A DNA stretch of 56,430 bases from Acidimicrobiales bacterium (GTDB lineage: Bacteria > Actinomycetota > Acidimicrobiia > Acidimicrobiales > RAAP-2), in NCBI GenBank assembly GCA_030039755.1, contig JASHUY010000056.1, positions 1 through 56,430 of the forward strand. The letters are read 5' to 3'. The position numbers and the translations under genes were made by a program. The notes below the pieces were generated by a model. It saw only the letters and a program-made list of their open reading frames with translations, searched no databases and was not told the origin of the DNA. The stretch's first letter is position 1, and each line of letters opens with the position of its first letter. This document shows positions 9,500 to 16,740 of the stretch, in pieces.

Positions 9500-11212
9500 A
9501 TGAGCGGGCAGTTCGAAGGCCCGGAGCGGGCGCCGTCCACCGTGGAGCACGAGCAGCGAGGTGGTGGTCGCGACCCCGTGCCGGCACTCGTGGTGCGGAA
9601 GATCTCCAAGTCCTTCGACCGCACGAGAGCGCTCGACGACGTCGACCTGACGATCAACCGGGGCGAGGTGCTCGCGCTGGTGGGCCAGAACGGGTCCGGC
9701 AAGTCCACGCTCGTCAAGGTCCTCTCCGGGTACCACGAGCCCGAGCCGGGCGGCGAGCTCACGATCGAGGGCGTCGACGTCCCGCTGCCGCTCCCGCCCG
9801 GCAAGGCGAGCGAGATCGGCCTCAGCTTCGTGTACCAGGACCTCGGGCTCAGCGGTGGCATGAGCGTGCTCGAGAACCTGAACCTCAGCTCGCGCAGGCG
9901 GCGCGGTCTCGGCGCCTGGTCGCCGATCTGGTGGCCACGGGAGCGTCGCCAGGCGAACGCGGTCTTGAAGCTCTACGAGGTCTCCCTCGATCTCCGCACC
10001 CGTGCCCGCGACCTCGCCCCCGTCGACCAGGCCCGTCTCGCCATCGTCCGCTCCGCGAACGACCTCCGTCAGTTCCAGGCGAGCCGGGGGGACCGTTGCT
10101 CGATACTCGTGCTCGACGAGCCCACCGTCTTCCTGCCTGAAGAGGACGTCCGCTTCCTCTTCGACCTCATCAGGACGATCGTGAACTTGGGGGGAAGCGT
10201 CCTGTTCATCTCGCACGACCTCGCGGCGGTCAGGGAGATCGCCGACCGGACGGTGGTGTTCCGCGACGGCCGCAAGGTCGCCGAGGTCCTGCGCGGCGAG
10301 GTCGACGAGGAAGAGCTCGTGAACCTCATCGTCGGCACGGCGACGACGCGGAGGTCGGCCACGCCCGAGGGCGCCGGAATTCCCGCCGAAGCCACGAGCC
10401 GTCCGGCGGCGCAGCAACCCGTGCAGGCGAATGGAGGCGGCCTCCCCCCGCCGACGCCACCGCGGCCGGAGCGGGTCATCAGGATCGACGGACTGGCGGG
10501 CGGTCGCCTGCGCGAGCTGTCCCTCACCCTCGCCGCCGGCGAGATCGTTGGCCTCGCGGGCCTGATCGGATCGGGAGCAGAAGACGTGCCGTACCTGCTG
10601 TTCGGCGCGCTGGCGGCTGCCGCGGGCACGCTCGAGGTCGATCGTGAGATCCTGTCCATCCCGCGGATCACGCCGAGCGAGGCGGTCCGCAGGCACCTCG
10701 CACTGATCCCCGCGGACCGCAAGCAGTTCGGCCTCGGCCTTTCGCTGGACGTCTGGGAGAACATGGTGATGCTCGTCCAGGGCGACTACTTCCGCCGCGG
10801 GCTCTTCCGCCGCGACGAGCTCGTGGAGGTCGCGGAGCGGGGCGTCGACGACTTCGGCATCAGGCCGCCCCGCGTCGACGTGCGGGCGAATGCGCTCTCC
10901 GGGGGGAACCAGCAGAAGCTGCTGCTCGCCAAGTGGCTCCTCGCGCGACCCCGGTTGCTGGTCGCGCACGAGCCGACCCAGGGCGTCGACGTGGGCGCGC
11001 GTCGTGACATCTACCGTCTCGTACGCGGAGCCGCAGAAGCCCAGGCGATGGCCGTGGTCTGGGTCACCACCGATTACGACGAGATCGCGGAGGTGTGCGA
11101 CCGCGTCGTGATCGTCTCGAAGGGACGGCAGTCGGGCGAGCTCCGGGGCGCCGAGATGAGCGACGACTCGATCAGCGCCGCCGTGTTGCGGCAATTCGAG
11201 GAGGTGGGGTAG
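9500..11212 (+). CDS. Dual-domain sugar ABC ATPase (RbsA/MglA type)
   Basis: 570 residues, two fused ATPase domains. Domain 1 has Walker A GQNGSGKS, Walker B ILVLDEPT and the H-loop SHDLA, but its signature region reads LAPVDQARLA instead of LSxGQ. After a Pro-rich linker (about 295-330), domain 2 has a degenerate Walker A (GLIGSGAED, no Lys) and an intact LSGGNQQK signature. In this family one composite site is commonly degenerate, so function is expected. It powers import by the permease at 11228 with the binding protein at 8144. Confidence 0.92.
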   Translation: MSGQFEGPERAPSTVEHEQRGGGRDPVPALVVRKISKSFDRTRALDDVDLTINRGEVLALVGQNGSGKSTLVKVLSGYHEPEPGGELTIEGVDVPLPLPPGKASEIGLSFVYQDLGLSGGMSVLENLNLSSRRRRGLGAWSPIWWPRERRQANAVLKLYEVSLDLRTRARDLAPVDQARLAIVRSANDLRQFQASRGDRCSILVLDEPTVFLPEEDVRFLFDLIRTIVNLGGSVLFISHDLAAVREIADRTVVFRDGRKVAEVLRGEVDEEELVNLIVGTATTRRSATPEGAGIPAEATSRPAAQQPVQANGGGLPPPTPPRPERVIRIDGLAGGRLRELSLTLAAGEIVGLAGLIGSGAEDVPYLLFGALAAAAGTLEVDREILSIPRITPSEAVRRHLALIPADRKQFGLGLSLDVWENMVMLVQGDYFRRGLFRRDELVEVAERGVDDFGIRPPRVDVRANALSGGNQQKLLLAKWLLARPRLLVAHEPTQGVDVGARRDIYRLVRGAAEAQAMAVVWVTTDYDEIAEVCDRVVIVSKGRQSGELRGAEMSDDSISAAVLRQFEEVG

Positions 11213-11227
11213 CTGGACACGTCACTC

Positions 11228-12280
11228 GTGCAAGAGAGCGGGAGCGGGCCTGTTCCGGAGACTCCCGGGGAGCGGGAGCGGCGCACCGAGCAGACCCTAC
11301 GGGGCGGCCTGGCTCGCATGAGCCACGGCCTGGACCGGTACGCGCTCATCATCGCGTTCGTCGGGATCCTCATCGGGTTCAGCGCGGCCGACTCGTCGAC
11401 CTTCGACACCGTCGCGAACCTCTCGAACATCCTGGGCTCCCAGGCGGTGCTCTTCATCCTCACGGTCGCGGTGCTCCTCCCGACGATCATGGGCGACTTC
11501 GTCGATCTCTCCCTCGGCGCGTCCCTGGGGCTCTCGGCGATGACGATCGCCGTCTTGAACGTGAACCACGGCGTGCCGATCGTCTATGCGTGCCTTGCCG
11601 GGGTGGGTGCGGCAGTCGTCGTCGGCCTGGTCAACACGGTCTTCGTCGTCTACTACGGCAACGACCCGTTCATCATCACCCTGGGCGTGATGACGGTCGT
11701 CGAAGGCGTCACGTACATCATCTGCAGCAACGCCACCGTCGGAGTCGTCTCGACGGGCTTGTCGAACTGGATCTACACGAACACGTTCCTGTCGATCCCG
11801 CTCGAGTTCTACTACGCGCTCGCGATCTTCGTCGTGGTCTGGTACGTGCTGAGCTTCACGCCGGTGGGCCAGAAGGCGCTCGTCATCGGTCAGTCGCGGG
11901 AGGTCGCCCGCCTGAGCGGCTTCCACGTGAACCGCCAGCGCGCGTGGGCGTTCATCATCGCCGCCGCGATCGCCGGCATCGCCGGCATCGCGTACGCGGG
12001 CACGTACGGCTCCGTCGACCCCACGGCGGGGAGCGTGTACATCCTCCCGGCGTACGCGGCGGTCTTCCTCGGCGCGACCGCGATCCATCCGGGACGGATG
12101 AACGCCCTCGGCGCGCTCATCGCCGTCTACTTCCTTGCGGCCGGTACCGCCGGACTCGAGCTCCTCGGGGCGCAGGCCTACGCCCAGCAGATCTTCTACG
12201 GTGCAGCGTTGGTGGTGGCCGTGGCGTTCCCGACGGTGACCCGCAAGCGCATCTTCAAGCGGCGGAGGGCACCGGCGTGA
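11228..12280 (+). CDS. Sugar ABC transporter permease (RbsC type)
   Basis: 350 residues with a hydrophilic N-terminal stretch of about 35 residues, then roughly eight to ten membrane segments. The family loop appears as GDFVDLSLGASLGLSAM near the third helix and again near YGSVDPTAGSVYILPAYAAV. The start is GTG at 11228, 15 bases after the ATPase stop; an in-frame ATG at 11318 just before the first helix is an alternative. It forms the channel with the ATPase encoded just upstream. Confidence 0.92.
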   Translation: MQESGSGPVPETPGERERRTEQTLRGGLARMSHGLDRYALIIAFVGILIGFSAADSSTFDTVANLSNILGSQAVLFILTVAVLLPTIMGDFVDLSLGASLGLSAMTIAVLNVNHGVPIVYACLAGVGAAVVVGLVNTVFVVYYGNDPFIITLGVMTVVEGVTYIICSNATVGVVSTGLSNWIYTNTFLSIPLEFYYALAIFVVVWYVLSFTPVGQKALVIGQSREVARLSGFHVNRQRAWAFIIAAAIAGIAGIAYAGTYGSVDPTAGSVYILPAYAAVFLGATAIHPGRMNALGALIAVYFLAAGTAGLELLGAQAYAQQIFYGAALVVAVAFPTVTRKRIFKRRRAPA

Positions 12281-12402: not shown

Positions 12403-13509
12403 ATGCGTGCGGCCGTGCTGGAGGCGCCGAACCGCCCTCTCCAGATCGAGGACCTGGCAGAGCCCTCGCCCGGCCCGGGCGAGGTGCTAGTGGCCACGAC
12501 GGCGTGTGGCGTCTGCCACACCGACCTGCACGTCATGAAGGGGGAGGTGATCTTCCCCACCCCCGCGGTGCTCGGCCACGAGGTGTCGGGAGTGGTCGCG
12601 GCCGTGGGGAACGGGGTGGAGACGGTCCGGGTCGGCGACCGCGTGGTCGCCAGCTTCATCATGCCGTGCGGCTGGTGCCGGCACTGCGTCCGCGGCGCCG
12701 AGGACCTGTGCGAGACGTTCTTCTCCTTCAACCGGCTGCGGGGAACGCTCTACGACGGGCAGACGAGGCTGCGGCGTGCCGACGGGTCGACGGTCGCCAT
12801 GTACTCGATGGGAGGTCTGGCGGAGCGCTGCGTCGTGCCGGCAACCGACGTCTTCCGCGTGCCGGACGCGTTGACGCTGCGGGACGTCACCACGCTCGGG
12901 TGCAGCATGCTGACGGCGTACGGCGCGGTCCACAACGTCGCCGCCCTGCGGCCCGGGGACGACGTGGCGGTGGTCGCCGTCGGGGGGGTGGGGTCCGCCC
13001 TCGTGCAGATGGCCGTCGCCTACGGCGCTGCACGGGTCATCGCCGTCGACGTGAGCAGGGAGAAGCTGAAGGCCGCCGAAGCGCTGGGGGCCACCCACAC
13101 GGTCGACGCCAGCGCCGTCGACCCCGTCGACGCGGTCCGCGCCGCCACGGAGGGTCGCGGGGTCGCGGTGGCCTTCGAGGCGCTGGGCAGCGCCGCCACG
13201 TTCGCCGCCGCCTGCGGCATGGCCGACGACGGCGGGGCGGTGGTGGTCATCGGCATCGCGCCCGCCGGCGTCACCGGCGCGGTCGACCTGTCCAGGTTGC
13301 CCAGACGCAAGCTCCGGATCCTCGGGTCGTACGGGGGTCGGCCCCGCGCCGACATGCCCGCGTTGCTGCGTCTGGTCGAGCGGGGTGTGCTCAGGCCGCA
13401 GGCCCTGGTGACGCGCCACTTCGACCTCGCCGACGCCGACGCCGCCTACCAGGCGCTCGCGCGCGGCGAGATCGTGGGTCGCGCCCTCGTCGACGTGGGC
13501 CCCGGTTGA
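12403..13509 (+). CDS. Zinc-dependent alcohol dehydrogenase (MDR family)
   Basis: 368 residues. Catalytic zinc ligands are visible in CGVCHTD and GHE, and the four-cysteine structural zinc lobe as CGWCRHCVRGAEDLC. The NAD(P)-binding fold has AVGGVGSALVQMA followed by VIAVDVSREKL, where the Asp after the second strand favours NAD. ATG at 12403 follows AGAAGGAG. It lies 122 bases downstream of the sugar permease on the same strand and its stop overlaps the proposed TTG of the next gene. Role: oxidising a hydroxyl of an imported carbohydrate or its product, or the reverse. Substrate unknown. Confidence 0.92.
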   Translation: MRAAVLEAPNRPLQIEDLAEPSPGPGEVLVATTACGVCHTDLHVMKGEVIFPTPAVLGHEVSGVVAAVGNGVETVRVGDRVVASFIMPCGWCRHCVRGAEDLCETFFSFNRLRGTLYDGQTRLRRADGSTVAMYSMGGLAERCVVPATDVFRVPDALTLRDVTTLGCSMLTAYGAVHNVAALRPGDDVAVVAVGGVGSALVQMAVAYGAARVIAVDVSREKLKAAEALGATHTVDASAVDPVDAVRAATEGRGVAVAFEALGSAATFAAACGMADDGGAVVVIGIAPAGVTGAVDLSRLPRRKLRILGSYGGRPRADMPALLRLVERGVLRPQALVTRHFDLADADAAYQALARGEIVGRALVDVGPG

Positions 13510-14924
13510 CCGGCCGCACCGCCGCAGGAGACGCCCGAGCTGGAGGAGGAGCGCCGACCGCCGTCGCCGAGCCCGGCCGGTCCACCCCGGTCCTCGGGGA
13601 GTTCGACGTGGTGGTGGTCGGCGGCGGGCCGGCCGGCATCATGGCCGCCGCCGCGGCCGCCCGGACCGGGCGCTCGACGGTCCTGCTCGAGCGGTACGGG
13701 TTCCTCGGGGGTGCGGGGACTGCCGGTGGGCTCAGCACCTTCTGCGGCCTGCACGCCAGGGTCCACGGCGAGGACCGCCGCGTCGTCCACGGCCTCTCGG
13801 ACGACCTCTACGGGCACCTCCGTCTGCTCGACGGGCTCGCCCCCGAGCACCTGACGATCAACGACAGGATCCTGGCGCAGGCCTTCGACATCTCCGCCTA
13901 CAAGCTCGCCGCCGACCGCCTGGTCACCGGCTGCGGGGCGACGATCGTCTTCCACGCGCTCGCTGTCGGCGTCGTGCTGCGCGACGGGTCCTCGATCGAC
14001 GCGGTGCTGGTGGAGTCGAAGTCTGGGCGACGCGCGGTGCGGGGCCGCGTCTTCGTGGACGCCTCCGGGGACGCGGACGTGGCGGCCTGGGCCGGAGCGC
14101 CGTTCGAGAAGTCTCCCGGCCTGCACGGGATGCTCTACCCGTCGCTCATGTTCCGGATCAACGGGGTCGACGCGACGGCCGCAGGGGAGAAGCCCTGGCG
14201 CACCGCCGAGCGGCTCATGGACGAGGCGGAGGCGGCGGGCACCCACCACTTCCCCCGGAAGCGGCCGATCGTGCGGCCGCAGCGCAACCCCCTCGAGTGG
14301 CGGGCGAACCTGACCCAGCTCTCGAACGCCGACGGCAGCGCCGTCGACGGCACCGACGTCCTTCAGATGACCCACGGCGAGCTCCAAGGACGCGAGCAGG
14401 TCTTCGAGGCCTTCTCTTTCATCAAGCAGAACGTCCCGGGGTTCTCCGGCGCGTACGTGGTCGACATCGCGCCGCAGATCGGCATCCGCGAGACCCGCCG
14501 GATCGTCGGCGCCTACCAGCTGAGCGAGGACGACGTGCTCGACTGCGTCGACTTCGAGGACGCCATCGGGGTGAACGGCTGGCCGGTCGAAGCACACGTC
14601 GCCGGCACCGTCGAGTTCCGTTGGCAGCGCGGCGAGCAGTCCCGCGGCTTCAACCAGCTCCCTTACCGGATGCTGCTCCCGCAGGGGATCGACAACCTCT
14701 TCGTGACCGGGCGGTGCGCGTCGATGACCCACGAGGGCCAGTCCTCCGCCCGGGTCACCGGTCCGTGCTTCGTGATGGGCGAGGCCGCCGGCACGGCGGC
14801 CGACATGGTGCTGAGCGACGGCGGCACCACGAGAACGGTCGACGTCCCGACGCTCCAGGCGCGTCTCGAGAAGAACGGGGTCTTCCTCGGAGATCACGCC
14901 GCGCAACCTGGTACCGTGCGATGA
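13506..14924 (+). CDS. FAD-dependent oxidoreductase (FAD_oxidored-like)
   Basis: The recognisable protein starts at EFDVVVVGGGPAGIMAAAAA, a Rossmann FAD site; before it lie about 30 low-complexity residues. The start is uncertain: TTG at 13506 overlaps the dehydrogenase TGA, while the frame stays open far upstream as a shadow of that gene. Later motifs are YGFLGGAGTAGGLSTFCG, VFVDASGDADVAAWAG (second FAD contact) and the C-terminal NLFVTGRCASMTHEG...GEAAGTAA. This pattern is typical of the FAD-dependent family found with sugar-acid operons. Length about 470 residues is normal. It ends ATGA, close to the selenoprotein gene. Confidence 0.85.
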   Translation: MTGRTAAGDARAGGGAPTAVAEPGRSTPVLGEFDVVVVGGGPAGIMAAAAAARTGRSTVLLERYGFLGGAGTAGGLSTFCGLHARVHGEDRRVVHGLSDDLYGHLRLLDGLAPEHLTINDRILAQAFDISAYKLAADRLVTGCGATIVFHALAVGVVLRDGSSIDAVLVESKSGRRAVRGRVFVDASGDADVAAWAGAPFEKSPGLHGMLYPSLMFRINGVDATAAGEKPWRTAERLMDEAEAAGTHHFPRKRPIVRPQRNPLEWRANLTQLSNADGSAVDGTDVLQMTHGELQGREQVFEAFSFIKQNVPGFSGAYVVDIAPQIGIRETRRIVGAYQLSEDDVLDCVDFEDAIGVNGWPVEAHVAGTVEFRWQRGEQSRGFNQLPYRMLLPQGIDNLFVTGRCASMTHEGQSSARVTGPCFVMGEAAGTAADMVLSDGGTTRTVDVPTLQARLEKNGVFLGDHAAQPGTVR

Positions 14925-14977
14925 TCCGCAGCGCGCCCGCCATGTTGCGCGCGCCGTCAGGAACGAGGAGGCACGCT

Positions 14978-15520
14978 TTGTCACCGCTGTTGGAGGAGAT
15001 GCTCGACCCCACCGGCTCGCGGAGCGTGAGCGGCGACGCCCGCCTGGCACCCCGCAGCCACCAGCTTCGGGGAAAGACGGTGGGCCTGCTCAACAACACC
15101 AAGCCGAACAGCGCGAGGCTGCTGGAGCAGCTGGCCGAGCTGCTGGGGGAACGCTACGAGCTCGCCGAGGTCCTGATGTTCTCGAAGCCCTCGTTCGCGG
15201 TGCCGGCCGACGACGCGCTGCTCGGCCAGATCGCGGAGAGGTGCGACTACGCGCTGGCCGGGGTGGGTGATTGAGGCTCCTGTAGCGCGGCCAGTTTGGC
15301 CGACGGGATCCTCCTCGAGCGGCGAGGCGTGCCGGCGGTGTCGGTCTGCACCGACAAGTTCCGGATGACCGCTGAGGCGATGGCGCGCCTGCACGGCTTC
15401 GAGGGCTACCGCTTCGTCACCGTCGCCCATCCGATCGCAAGCCTCGAGCTCCCCGAACTGGCGAACCTCGCTGCGGGCGCGCTCGACGAGGTCCTCGCCA
15501 TCCTCGGGGTCACCCGGTGA
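14978..15520 (+). CDS. UGSC-family selenoprotein, with in-frame TGA read as selenocysteine
   Basis: The frame is interrupted only by TGA at 15272-15274. Reading it as Sec gives GVGD-U-GSCS followed by LADGILLERRGVPAVSVCTDKF and VAHPIASL, which is the family signature UGSC and its usual flanks. Both halves are in the same frame. TTG at 14978 is chosen because AGGAGG lies 6 bases before it; ATG at 14921 (overlapping the previous stop) and ATG at 14999 are alternatives. From 14978 the protein has 180 residues with Sec at 99. A hairpin follows the TGA in the position of a bacterial SECIS. Function is unknown but redox chemistry is expected. The next gene, its usual partner, overlaps by GTGA. Confidence 0.88.
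15272..15302 (+). promoter_or_regulatory. Sec codon TGA and candidate bacterial SECIS hairpin
   Basis: After TGA (15272-15274), CGGCCA (15288-15293) pairs perfectly with TGGCCG (15297-15302) around a GTT loop. The loop G is 20 bases past the TGA, within the range of bacterial SECIS elements, whose apical loop usually carries a G and a U. The lower stem is imperfect. Confidence 0.7.
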
Positions 15521-16740
15521 CGGGCGACACGACCGCCGGCGACACGACCGCCGGCGACACGACCGCCGGCGACGCGACCGCCGGCGACGCGACCGCGGTC
15601 GACACGCTGATCGACCACCGGCAGGTCCGCCGGGCGATCGAGCACTACTACGAGCAGGGCTTCACCGACGGCCTTCCGGTGGTGCCGCCGACCGAGTCGT
15701 ACCTGGCGGAATTCCTGGCGCAGGTGGACCGGTCGCCCGACGAGGTCGTCGCCACCATGCCGCACCTGAACCGGCAGTGCACCGTGCGCGTGGCGGCGAT
15801 CAACTCGATCATGGCGGGGTGCCTGCCCGAGTACTTCCCGGTAGTGGTCGCGATCCTCGACGCGTTGCGCGTCGACGTCGGAGCCCGCGGCGCGACCCGC
15901 TTCTCGAGCGGGCTCTGGCAGAGCACGACCGGCACCGTGCCGATCACCGTGGTGAACGGGCCCGTGCGCCTCCGCCTCGGGTTCAACTGCCAGGGCAACA
16001 TCTTCGGCCCCGGCTTCCGCCCGAACGCCACGATCGGTCGGACGCTCCGGCTGATCGCGCTGAACGCCCTGGGACTGAAGCCCCACGTCCTCGACCAGTC
16101 CACCCAGGGGACGCCCGCGAAGTACACCTGCTGCGTCGCCGAGAACGAAGAAGAGAGCCCCTGGGAGCCGCTCTCCGTCGAAGCCGGCTACGGCCCCGAT
16201 GCGAGCACCGTCTCGTTCATGATGATGCGGTCCACCATGCACATCGAGGCACGCTCGGCAACCCGCCCCGAGCACCTGCTGAACGACGTCGCGAACTCGG
16301 TCGGGCGCACCGGCGTGCTCTACTCGGAGAAGACCGCCTGCCTCGTCGTCGTGAGCCCCGAGCACGCGCAGCTCCTCGCCTCGCAGGGCTGGGGCAAGAA
16401 CGACGTCAAGGAGTACCTGGCGGCCAACGCCCAGTGCACCCGGGAAGCCCTGGAGCGTGCGGGCAAGACCGGGATCTCGAGGGACATGCACTGGCTGGTG
16501 CCGAGCGACCATCCCGACGCCCTGGCAGGCGAGGAGCCGCACTTCGAACTTCGAGGTGGAACCGAGGTCCACCACGTCCTCAGCTCACCCGACGACGTCG
16601 TCGTCATCGTCGCCGGCGCGGCCAACGCCGGGGTCTCGACGGTGGTCGAGCTGATGGGCGGCTCCTCGGCTCCGAGCGGTCGCGGGGGTGGCCGGGTCCC
16701 CGCCATGAGCGAGATTCTTCTCAGGGGGGCATCTGCTTGA
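15517..16740 (+). CDS. Large partner protein of the UGSC selenoprotein
   Basis: 407 residues starting at GTG 15517, overlapping the selenoprotein stop. Residues 3-27 are five repeats of GDTTA/GDATA. The body begins HYYEQGFTDGLPVVPPTE and contains NSIMAGCLPEYFPVV, TGTVPITVVNGP, FNCQGNIFGPGFRPNATIGR and several conserved cysteines (KYTCCVAE). I know this family as the protein regularly encoded next to UGSC proteins; its activity is not known to me. No signal peptide or membrane span is visible. The pair probably forms one enzyme acting on a product of the carbohydrate pathway upstream. Confidence 0.75.
   Translation: MTGDTTAGDTTAGDTTAGDATAGDATAVDTLIDHRQVRRAIEHYYEQGFTDGLPVVPPTESYLAEFLAQVDRSPDEVVATMPHLNRQCTVRVAAINSIMAGCLPEYFPVVVAILDALRVDVGARGATRFSSGLWQSTTGTVPITVVNGPVRLRLGFNCQGNIFGPGFRPNATIGRTLRLIALNALGLKPHVLDQSTQGTPAKYTCCVAENEEESPWEPLSVEAGYGPDASTVSFMMMRSTMHIEARSATRPEHLLNDVANSVGRTGVLYSEKTACLVVVSPEHAQLLASQGWGKNDVKEYLAANAQCTREALERAGKTGISRDMHWLVPSDHPDALAGEEPHFELRGGTEVHHVLSSPDDVVVIVAGAANAGVSTVVELMGGSSAPSGRGGGRVPAMSEILLRGASA
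15523..15597 (+). repeat. 15-bp tandem repeat, five units
   Basis: Five head-to-tail copies of GGCGACACGACCGCC (the last two with GCG for ACA at the third codon) encode GDTTA/GDATA at the start of the selenoprotein partner. Copy number could change in frame, altering N-terminal length only. Confidence 0.9.

What the first reader, a model, noticed from the sequence alone, without database searches (positions are those of the whole stretch)
14978..15520. UGSC selenoprotein with in-frame TGA and SECIS-like hairpin
One frame gives GVGD-TGA-GSCS, exactly the UGSC family signature, with family-like sequence on both sides and a CGGCCA-GTT-TGGCCG hairpin centred 20 bases after the TGA. An automatic annotation would split it into a short truncated ORF and a separate ORF at 15296. 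Sec-using actinobacteria are uncommon, so this is informative for the lineage.
Basis: partly seen in the sequence, partly recalled or inferred. Interest (0 to 1): 0.85.

Follow-up and report, generated by a model that had tools for sequence, protein, structure and literature searches.

The report
Selenocysteine-containing UGSC protein and its partner
This bacterial gene uses a stop codon (UGA) to insert selenium-containing selenocysteine into a protein of a known but functionally uncharacterised family, and it sits beside a conserved, unnamed partner gene that may help reveal what the pair does.

Summary
Window 14978-15520 (+) is one frame with TGA at 15272-15274 in GVGD-U-GSCS. Read through, it matches Pfam UGSC (E 1.7e-60) and passes NCBI's cut-off for "UGSC family (seleno)protein". 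The hairpin fits the published bacterial SECIS model. It covaries across 55 Sec-codon homologues (99.1% of cells paired) but hardly exceeds shuffles across 59 Cys homologues. The same draft genome holds tRNA-Sec, selB-selD-selA, a second UGA paralogue and a Cys paralogue. Three relatives keep the TGA, with purifying selection behind it. "Uncommon" is wrong for this class: 193 of 296 genomes have tRNA-Sec, though no other genome of the window's own family in that sample had a match.

The family has been known since 2008: a new member of a known kind. Not seen in the papers I looked at: a family without a Pfam model lies next to 104 of 113 UGSC genes; UGSC resembles the Sec domain of GrdB/PrdB reductases; the predicted fold is Rossmann/flavodoxin-like, not thioredoxin-like. 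Function is inferred.

The parts
14965..14971 (+). probable ribosome-binding site (GAGGAGG), 6 bases before the TTG start
   Evidence: read from sequence; also present in relative L024
14978..15520 (+). UGSC family selenoprotein gene, TTG start, 180 residues with Sec at residue 99, TGA terminator at 15518-15520
   Evidence: PF24696 E 1.7e-60, NF041046 159.5 bits over cut-off 125; start position conserved; pN/pS after the UGA 0.20-0.24 against three relatives
15272..15274 (+). in-frame TGA read as selenocysteine (U99)
   Evidence: at this codon 50 rows have TGA, 5 TAG and 59 TGC/TGT (114 rows, the window included); Sec machinery in genome
15281..15283 (+). TGT codon of the invariant Cys102 (UGSC motif, U-x-x-C)
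   Evidence: Cys in 85 of 85 aligned homologues
15288..15302 (+). bacterial SECIS apical hairpin: 6-bp stem CGGCCA/TGGCCG, loop GUU, 19 bases between UGA and loop
   Evidence: covariation in 55 Sec-codon rows, hardly above shuffles in 59 Cys rows; -20 kcal/mol for the 41 nt; fits the model quoted from PMC13188914
15517..16740 (+). partner gene, 407 aa, GTG start overlapping the UGSC stop (GTGA); family without a Pfam or NCBIfam model
   Evidence: partner family next to 104 of 113 UGSC hits, same strand (window's own copy not counted); no convincing Pfam and no NCBIfam match in 62 members
13509..14924 (+). FAD-dependent oxidoreductase (PF12831), exact start not determined; directly upstream of UGSC
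   Evidence: PF12831 E 1.2e-107; same family in 6 of 144 neighbour proteins of UGSC in other loci
12403..13509 (+). zinc-dependent alcohol dehydrogenase family gene in the same run of genes
   Evidence: ADH_N, ADH_zinc_N; commonest family among neighbours of UGSC, 10 of 144 proteins
9500..12280 (+). ABC importer genes upstream: ATPase with two ABC stretches (9500-11212) and permease (11228-12280)
   Evidence: PF00005 and PF02653

Best explanation
The locus is a genuine bacterial selenoprotein gene of the UGSC family. Shown here by sequence: UGA codon 99, a covarying SECIS hairpin behind it, the set of Sec genes in the same assembly, and conservation on both sides. Follows from established knowledge: SelB carrying Sec-tRNA binds the hairpin and the ribosome inserts Sec instead of stopping. 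Inferred, about 35%: UGSC is the selenocysteine subunit of a two-protein catabolic enzyme with the partner encoded at 15517-16740. In that reading the Sec selenolate, at the start of the helix after strand 3 of a Rossmann-like domain, attacks an electrophilic carbon of an imported substrate and Cys102 resolves the intermediate, by analogy with the related Sec domain of GrdB/PrdB. The neighbouring FAD oxidoreductase or thiols would reduce the Se-S bond again.
For: UGSC profiles match across the UGA. TGA is conserved in three close relatives; codons after it are under purifying selection (pN/pS 0.20-0.24, uncorrected). Hairpin: contiguous stem of 6 or more bp in 47 of 50 TGA rows and 5 of 5 TAG rows, against 5 of 59 Cys rows; covariation score 0.458 against a shuffle mean of 0.123, 0 of 500 reaching it, and slid versions at most 0.052. 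The Cys paralogue of the same genome has only 4 contiguous pairs there and folds otherwise. Machinery. Of the 95 UGSC genomes of the class that the cut listing let me sort, 77 of 84 with a UGA copy (the window's genome included) have tRNA-Sec, against 3 of 11 with only in-frame copies. For the two-protein reading: partner beside 104 of 113 UGSC hits; the partner's start overlaps the UGSC stop in all three cassettes of this genome; hhalign with two sets of GRDB Sec domains at E 3.5e-6 and 1.4e-4, Sec aligned to Sec in both, scores 44.5 and 33.9 against at most 21.7 and 19.4 in 150 column shuffles each, and 40.7 for the first with Sec and Cys masked; catabolic neighbours.
Against: No protein or selenium measurement exists here, and no reads. 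The 71-nt fold around the hairpin is not more stable than shuffles (z +0.47); the 41-nt fold is (z -2.45), but that of the second Sec paralogue is not (z -0.69). Three of 50 TGA rows (L099, L101, L131) lack the 6-bp stem at the fixed place. The Cys rows' covariation score was reached by only 1 of 500 shuffles, so some pairing tendency exists without Sec. SelB's piece on C137 scores 227.6 bits, below its cut-off of 242.25. 7 of 84 UGA-UGSC genomes have no tRNA-Sec match. Against the functional part: the GRDB link is remote (hhalign probability 87.6% and 52.3%). With single sequences, one of 350 background neighbour proteins scored 29.6, above 4 of 9 long-type and 7 of 10 short-type GRDB members. 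The partner shows no similarity to GRDB or to the GrdE family PF09338. UGSC itself does not match PF07355.
Confidence: 0.95

Rival explanations
1. The TGA is a sequencing or assembly error, or a real nonsense mutation, in an ordinary Cys (CGSC) gene; the gene is either normal or a pseudogene.
For: 59 of 114 rows have TGC/TGT at the site. The assembly is a fragmented draft (247 contigs, 70% complete).
Against: Relatives L024, L025, L026 from separate assemblies have TGA and an unchanged hairpin; a second paralogue in the genome has the same arrangement; selection after the TGA is purifying; the Sec genes are present.
Confidence: 0.02
2. The genome reads UGA as a standard amino acid (for example Trp or Gly) throughout.
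For: The frame is open through one UGA.
Against: A Sec-type tRNA with anticodon tca is present; homologues have Cys, not Trp or Gly, at the site; neighbouring genes end at TGA: the FAD oxidoreductase at 14922-14924, UGSC at 15518-15520, and the alcohol dehydrogenase and the partner.
Confidence: 0.005
3. It is a selenoprotein, but works as a thiol oxidoreductase of the thioredoxin/peroxiredoxin kind (as guessed in 2008), acting alone; the partner is only a co-transcribed neighbour.
For: U-x-x-C motif as in thioredoxin-like selenoproteins; [quoted passage not shown]
Against: The confident model (pLDDT 91) has strand-helix repeats of the Rossmann/flavodoxin kind, and many of the best-ranked solved structures are of that kind, although a missing match excludes nothing. 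The partner is adjacent in 104 of 113 cases, downstream in 78 and upstream in 26.
Confidence: 0.25
4. UGSC and its partner form a hydratase/isomerase-like or other non-redox catabolic enzyme, with Sec as a nucleophile but no reduction of a bond.
For: The partner model's best solved match, though weak, is the two-subunit fumarate hydratase of M. jannaschii (Z 6.2, 191 residues, rmsd 5.3); neighbours in other loci include aconitase X, MaoC and dihydroxy-acid dehydratase families.
Against: Z 6.2 is within what unrelated models reach, by the tool's own note; only one Cys of the partner is invariant (Cys102, 62 of 62; Cys206 in 55 of 62), too few for the usual three-Cys iron-sulphur site (recalled).
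Confidence: 0.3

Closest known systems
UGSC-containing selenoprotein family (Pfam PF24696, NCBIfam NF041046; described in PMC2398784, 2008)
   Same: Profile match over nearly full length, UGSC motif, Sec/Cys alternation
   Different: Nothing of substance; this is one more member. Described here in addition: conserved adjacent partner family and a predicted non-thioredoxin fold
UAG-decoded Sec in Geodermatophilaceae, including UGSC proteins (Mukai et al. 2016 as cited in PMC5330540; passages of the latter seen)
   Same: Same gene family and same hairpin; five of our loci have TAG at the site
   Different: The window uses UGA, and its genome's tRNA-Sec has anticodon tca
GrdB/PrdB selenoprotein subunits (Pfam PF07355, GRDB) of glycine and D-proline reductases
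   Same: Strand-U-x-x-x-helix-E-x-x-G-I-P-strand layout; hhalign E 3.5e-6 and 1.4e-4 with Sec on Sec
   Different: UGSC does not match PF07355, lacks the N-terminal part, and its partner is not detectably GrdE
Bacterial SECIS elements (model in PMC13188914, passage seen)
   Same: 3-nt loop starting with G, 6-bp stem, 19-nt spacing, MFE below -7.5 kcal/mol
   Different: In this family the apex A-GTN-T is nearly invariant among Sec-codon rows

Membership tests
UGSC family (PF24696 / NF041046) | profile score over the curated cut-off | tested here: met
   204.5 bits against 25; 159.5 against 125
UGSC family (PF24696 / NF041046) | U/C-G-S-C motif | tested here: met
   GVGDUGSCS
Bacterial selenoprotein gene | in-frame UGA aligned with Cys in homologues, with conservation on both sides | tested here: met
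   59 Cys rows against 50 UGA rows; pN/pS 0.20-0.24 after the UGA
Bacterial selenoprotein gene | bSECIS hairpin fitting the published constraints | tested here: met
   loop GUU, 6 bp, 19-nt spacing, -20 kcal/mol against the model quoted; covariation
Bacterial selenoprotein gene | selA, selB, selC, selD in the genome | tested here: met
   the SelB piece on C137 is below its curated cut-off, its gene being split over two contigs
Bacterial selenoprotein gene | selenium in the protein | not testable with these tools
   needs mass spectrometry or 75Se labelling
GRDB family (PF07355, GrdB/PrdB) | match to the Pfam profile | tested here: not met
   only PF24696 was found at E up to 0.001; note that the PF07355 model ends just before the Sec site
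GRDB family (PF07355, GrdB/PrdB) | homologous Sec domain | tested here: inconclusive
   hhalign E 3.5e-6 and 1.4e-4, above 150 shuffles each, but remote, and one background protein outscored 11 of 19 single GRDB members
Thioredoxin-like selenoproteins | thioredoxin fold | tested here: inconclusive
   predicted Rossmann/flavodoxin-like order of strands and helices, many listed matches of that kind; absence from the list does not exclude
GrdE / PF09338 (for the partner) | profile similarity | tested here: inconclusive
   hhalign probability 0.1%, E 0.76: nothing found

The most novel reading that the evidence does not exclude
UGSC and its unnamed neighbour form an obligate two-protein selenoenzyme, distantly related through the Sec domain to the GrdB/PrdB reductases known from anaerobes but used for catabolism in a broad range of actinobacteria, with Sec and Cys versions of the same enzyme side by side in one genome. 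If so, the function of one of the commonest orphan selenoprotein families becomes directly testable.
Probability: 0.35. Interest if true: 0.65.

Novelty: new member of a known kind. Interest (0 to 1): 0.42.

Why it matters
UGSC is among the most abundant selenoprotein families in the Global Ocean Sampling data (PMC2398784, passages), and the passages of the papers seen here give it no function. Automatic annotation would break the gene at the UGA. The analysis gives a concrete handle: a conserved partner gene, a probable remote relationship to reductases whose Sec subunit binds the substrate, a predicted fold different from the one suggested in 2008, and a genome with Sec and Cys paralogues for comparison. 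It also shows that tRNA-Sec is widespread in this class while not found in the sampled sister genomes of the window's own family.

Tried and rejected
Error, pseudogene and code reassignment were tested as far as sequence allows and rejected. Partner as GrdE or as part of GRDB: no signal. Partner and UGSC against solved structures by sequence: nothing convincing (with the larger alignments best E 0.17 for UGSC over residues before the Sec site, and 2.3 for the partner). Fold search of the partner: no match at E 0.001 or better; best VIA Z 6.2, not interpretable. Fold search of UGSC: no Foldseek match at E 0.001 or better; 47 of 1000 aligned chains at Z 8 or more, the first a designed protein, so only the general fold is taken from it. 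The partner was not found beside the GRDB loci. Neighbour genes point to catabolism but not to one substrate.

Sampling limits. The 80 named loci are the best of 197 from a scan whose two peptide patterns included a Cys-containing one, so their Sec/Cys ratio is biased; 29 further loci are best matches of the class search. Class genomes were sorted into UGA and non-UGA from a match listing that was cut: 95 of 106. The tRNA-Sec search of the class used stricter filters and E up to 1e-9. The neighbour scan used 144 of 148 listed proteins from 25 loci, with a crude gene caller of my own, and shows the first 25 of 80 families; the four left out were to stay under the size limit. Row counts leave out duplicate loci (L019, L020; also L017, the window's own copy). 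One search counted partners on the same strand only; two of the 9 UGSC hits without one (L109, L115) were seen with only 1500 bases on each side, and L042 ends at the gene. L142 was not extended past the UGA. 350 of 578 background proteins were used. The column-shuffle controls were 150 per set. A protein reference used for the second Sec paralogue was one base too long; the extra base was not translated.

Full report
What is there. The frame from 14978 to 15520 on the + strand contains one TGA, at 15272-15274, and ends at a second TGA. Read with TGA as U it gives 180 residues with the motif GVGDUGSCS. Residues 7-177 match Pfam PF24696 'UGSC' (204.5 bits, E 1.7e-60), and NCBIfam NF041046 'UGSC family (seleno)protein' is passed (159.5 against 125 bits). 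Mechanical ORF calling stops at 15274 and offers a separate TTG ORF at 15296, whose start lies inside the hairpin. A start codon stands at the place of the window's TTG in four relatives (TTG, GTG, GTG, ATG), and GAGGAGG stands six bases before the window's start.

The hairpin. Thirteen bases after the TGA come CGGCCA, GTT, TGGCCG. A 2026 review gives the bacterial SECIS constraints as a 3-9 nt loop, a 4-16 bp stem, G in the first two loop positions, 16-37 nt from UGA to loop, and MFE at most -7.5 kcal/mol (PMC13188914, passages seen). The window has loop GUU, 6 bp, 19 nt and -20 kcal/mol for the 41-nt stretch. At the fixed place, a contiguous stem of at least 6 bp occurs in 47 of 50 TGA rows (the window included), 5 of 5 TAG rows and 5 of 59 Cys rows; the three TGA rows without it are L099, L101 and L131. 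On 55 gapless Sec-codon rows, 99.1% of cells pair, four of six pairs show changes on both sides, and the covariation score is 0.458 (shuffle mean 0.123, 0 of 500 as high; slid versions at most 0.052). In 59 Cys rows 73.2% of cells pair against 71.2% in shuffles, with a covariation score of 0.206 against 0.162 that 1 of 500 shuffles reached. Against this, the longer 71-nt fold is no more stable than shuffles, and the 41-nt fold of the second Sec paralogue has z -0.69.

Machinery and relatives. The window is contig C114 of a draft genome of 247 contigs, about 70% complete. The draft contains tRNA-Sec, 67.2 bits against a cut-off of 47, called by ARAGORN with anticodon tca. SelD and SelA lie in tandem on C26, both over cut-off. 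SelB on C137 is open at the contig end; its last 167 bases (14483-14649) are identical to C26 38-204, and in that register the selB frame goes on to a stop at C26 428, overlapping the start of selD at 427. So selB-selD-selA is very probably one operon. The SelB piece on C137 scores 227.6 bits, below its curated 242.25. Contig C75 holds two more UGSC genes: one with TGA and the hairpin, one with TGT, with 4 contiguous pairs at that place and another predicted fold. Relatives L024-L026 keep TGA; compared with the window, codons after the UGA show pN/pS of 0.20-0.24, against 0.27-0.35 before it. UGA is a normal stop in neighbouring genes, for example at 14922-14924.

Distribution. In 296 genomes of the window's class, 106 have UGSC and 193 have tRNA-Sec. 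Of the 95 UGSC genomes that the cut listing allowed me to sort, 77 of 84 with a UGA copy have tRNA-Sec, against 3 of 11 with only in-frame copies. No genome of the window's own family other than its own is listed with a match in either search; 18 such genomes are listed without one in both. So Sec use is common in the class and apparently sporadic in the family.

The partner. Directly after UGSC, overlapping its stop, begins a 407-aa gene (15517-16740). The three UGSC genes of this genome are each followed at once by a member of this family. Among 113 UGSC hits in fetched loci, counting the same strand only, 78 have it just downstream, 26 just upstream and 9 not at all; of these 9, L042 ends at the gene and L109 and L115 were seen with 1500 bases on each side. 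None of 62 members has a Pfam match better than E 0.014, nor any NCBIfam match at 0.01, and no solved relative was found by sequence. Its model (mean pLDDT 88.6) matches only weakly, best the two-subunit fumarate hydratase (Z 6.2). Invariant residues include Cys102, Thr137, Gly148 and Arg175. PMC2398784 mentions a UGSC fusion with 'Unknown_1' (passages); whether that is this family could not be checked.

Fold and remote kinship. UGSC is predicted with high confidence (pLDDT 91) as alternating strands and helices, with U99 between strand 91-97 and helix 100-115. Many of its best-ranked solved-structure matches are CheY-, flavodoxin- or Rossmann-like; the thioredoxin fold suggested in 2008 is not what the model shows. 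Profile comparison with the Sec domain of actinobacterial PF07355 (GrdB/PrdB-type) proteins gives E 3.5e-6 for the short type and 1.4e-4 for the long type, with Sec on Sec in both. The scores of 44.5 and 33.9 compare with at most 21.7 and 19.4 in 150 column shuffles each, and the first stays 40.7 with Sec and Cys masked. Single-sequence comparison is less clean: the best of 350 background proteins reaches 29.6, while PF07355 members range from 15.1 to 35.5, 11 of 19 of them below 29.6. UGSC itself is not a PF07355 member, and the partner shows no link to GrdE. I therefore file UGSC as a probable distant relative, not a member.

Surroundings. Upstream in the window lie ABC importer genes, a zinc alcohol dehydrogenase and an FAD oxidoreductase. 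Near the C75 cassettes lie oligopeptide-type ABC importer genes, a zinc alcohol dehydrogenase, a short-chain dehydrogenase and an aldehyde dehydrogenase. In 144 neighbour proteins from 25 other loci the commonest families are zinc alcohol dehydrogenases (10), AMP-binding enzymes (7), IclR regulators (7), FAD_oxidored (6), short-chain dehydrogenases (6) and aldehyde dehydrogenases (5) (first 25 of 80 families shown). This is a catabolic context. From it and the GRDB likeness I infer a two-protein enzyme in which Sec attacks a substrate carbon and Cys102 resolves; I give this part about 35%, and it is not shown.

What is known. The family (PMC2398784, 2008), its listing with an accession (PMC13188914; PMC9312934) and UAG-decoded copies in Geodermatophilaceae (PMC5330540, citing Mukai et al. 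2016, which I did not read) are in print. Searches for UGSC in the paper library showed no title or abstract opening on a function of this family. Of the eight papers I saw passages of five (PMC2398784, PMC13188914, PMC5029168, PMC9312934, PMC5330540) and only the listing of the other three; of PMC1794560 I saw passages. The finding is a true, well-supported new member of a known kind, with useful leads on function.

Noticed in passing
L028, L029, L031, L033, L034, position 6283: Geodermatophilus and Blastococcus UGSC genes have TAG at the Sec site with the same hairpin; UAG-decoded Sec in this family is already in print (PMC5330540).
   Followed up: yes
L133-L141, L143-L152: The Pfam model PF07355 (GRDB) ends at or just before the Sec site: all 19 hits that I extended have an in-frame UGA within the next three codons, followed by conserved sequence. 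The model seems to have been built on proteins truncated at UGA.
   Followed up: partly
window 15520-15600: The start of the partner gene carries a 15-base tandem repeat (GDTTA units); in relatives L024-L026 the same place has repeat-like stretches of other sequence, and L027 lacks it.
   Followed up: no
G000 against its family: No other genome of the window's own family is listed with UGSC or tRNA-Sec (18 listed without a match), so the Sec trait was either lost in the sisters or gained here.
   Followed up: no
L114 1774-1818: A UGSC gene with TGC (Cys) keeps an 8-bp stem at the SECIS place, which looks like a relic of a recent Sec-to-Cys change.
   Followed up: no
L043, L067, L068: L043 has a partner-family gene on each side of UGSC; L067 and L068 carry extra copies further downstream.
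   Followed up: no
JAJZMD010000146.1 (L025 and L093): In a related assembly a Sec-type and a Cys-type UGSC gene lie about 20 kb apart on one contig, which suggests that the window genome's set of paralogues is not a binning mistake.
   Followed up: no
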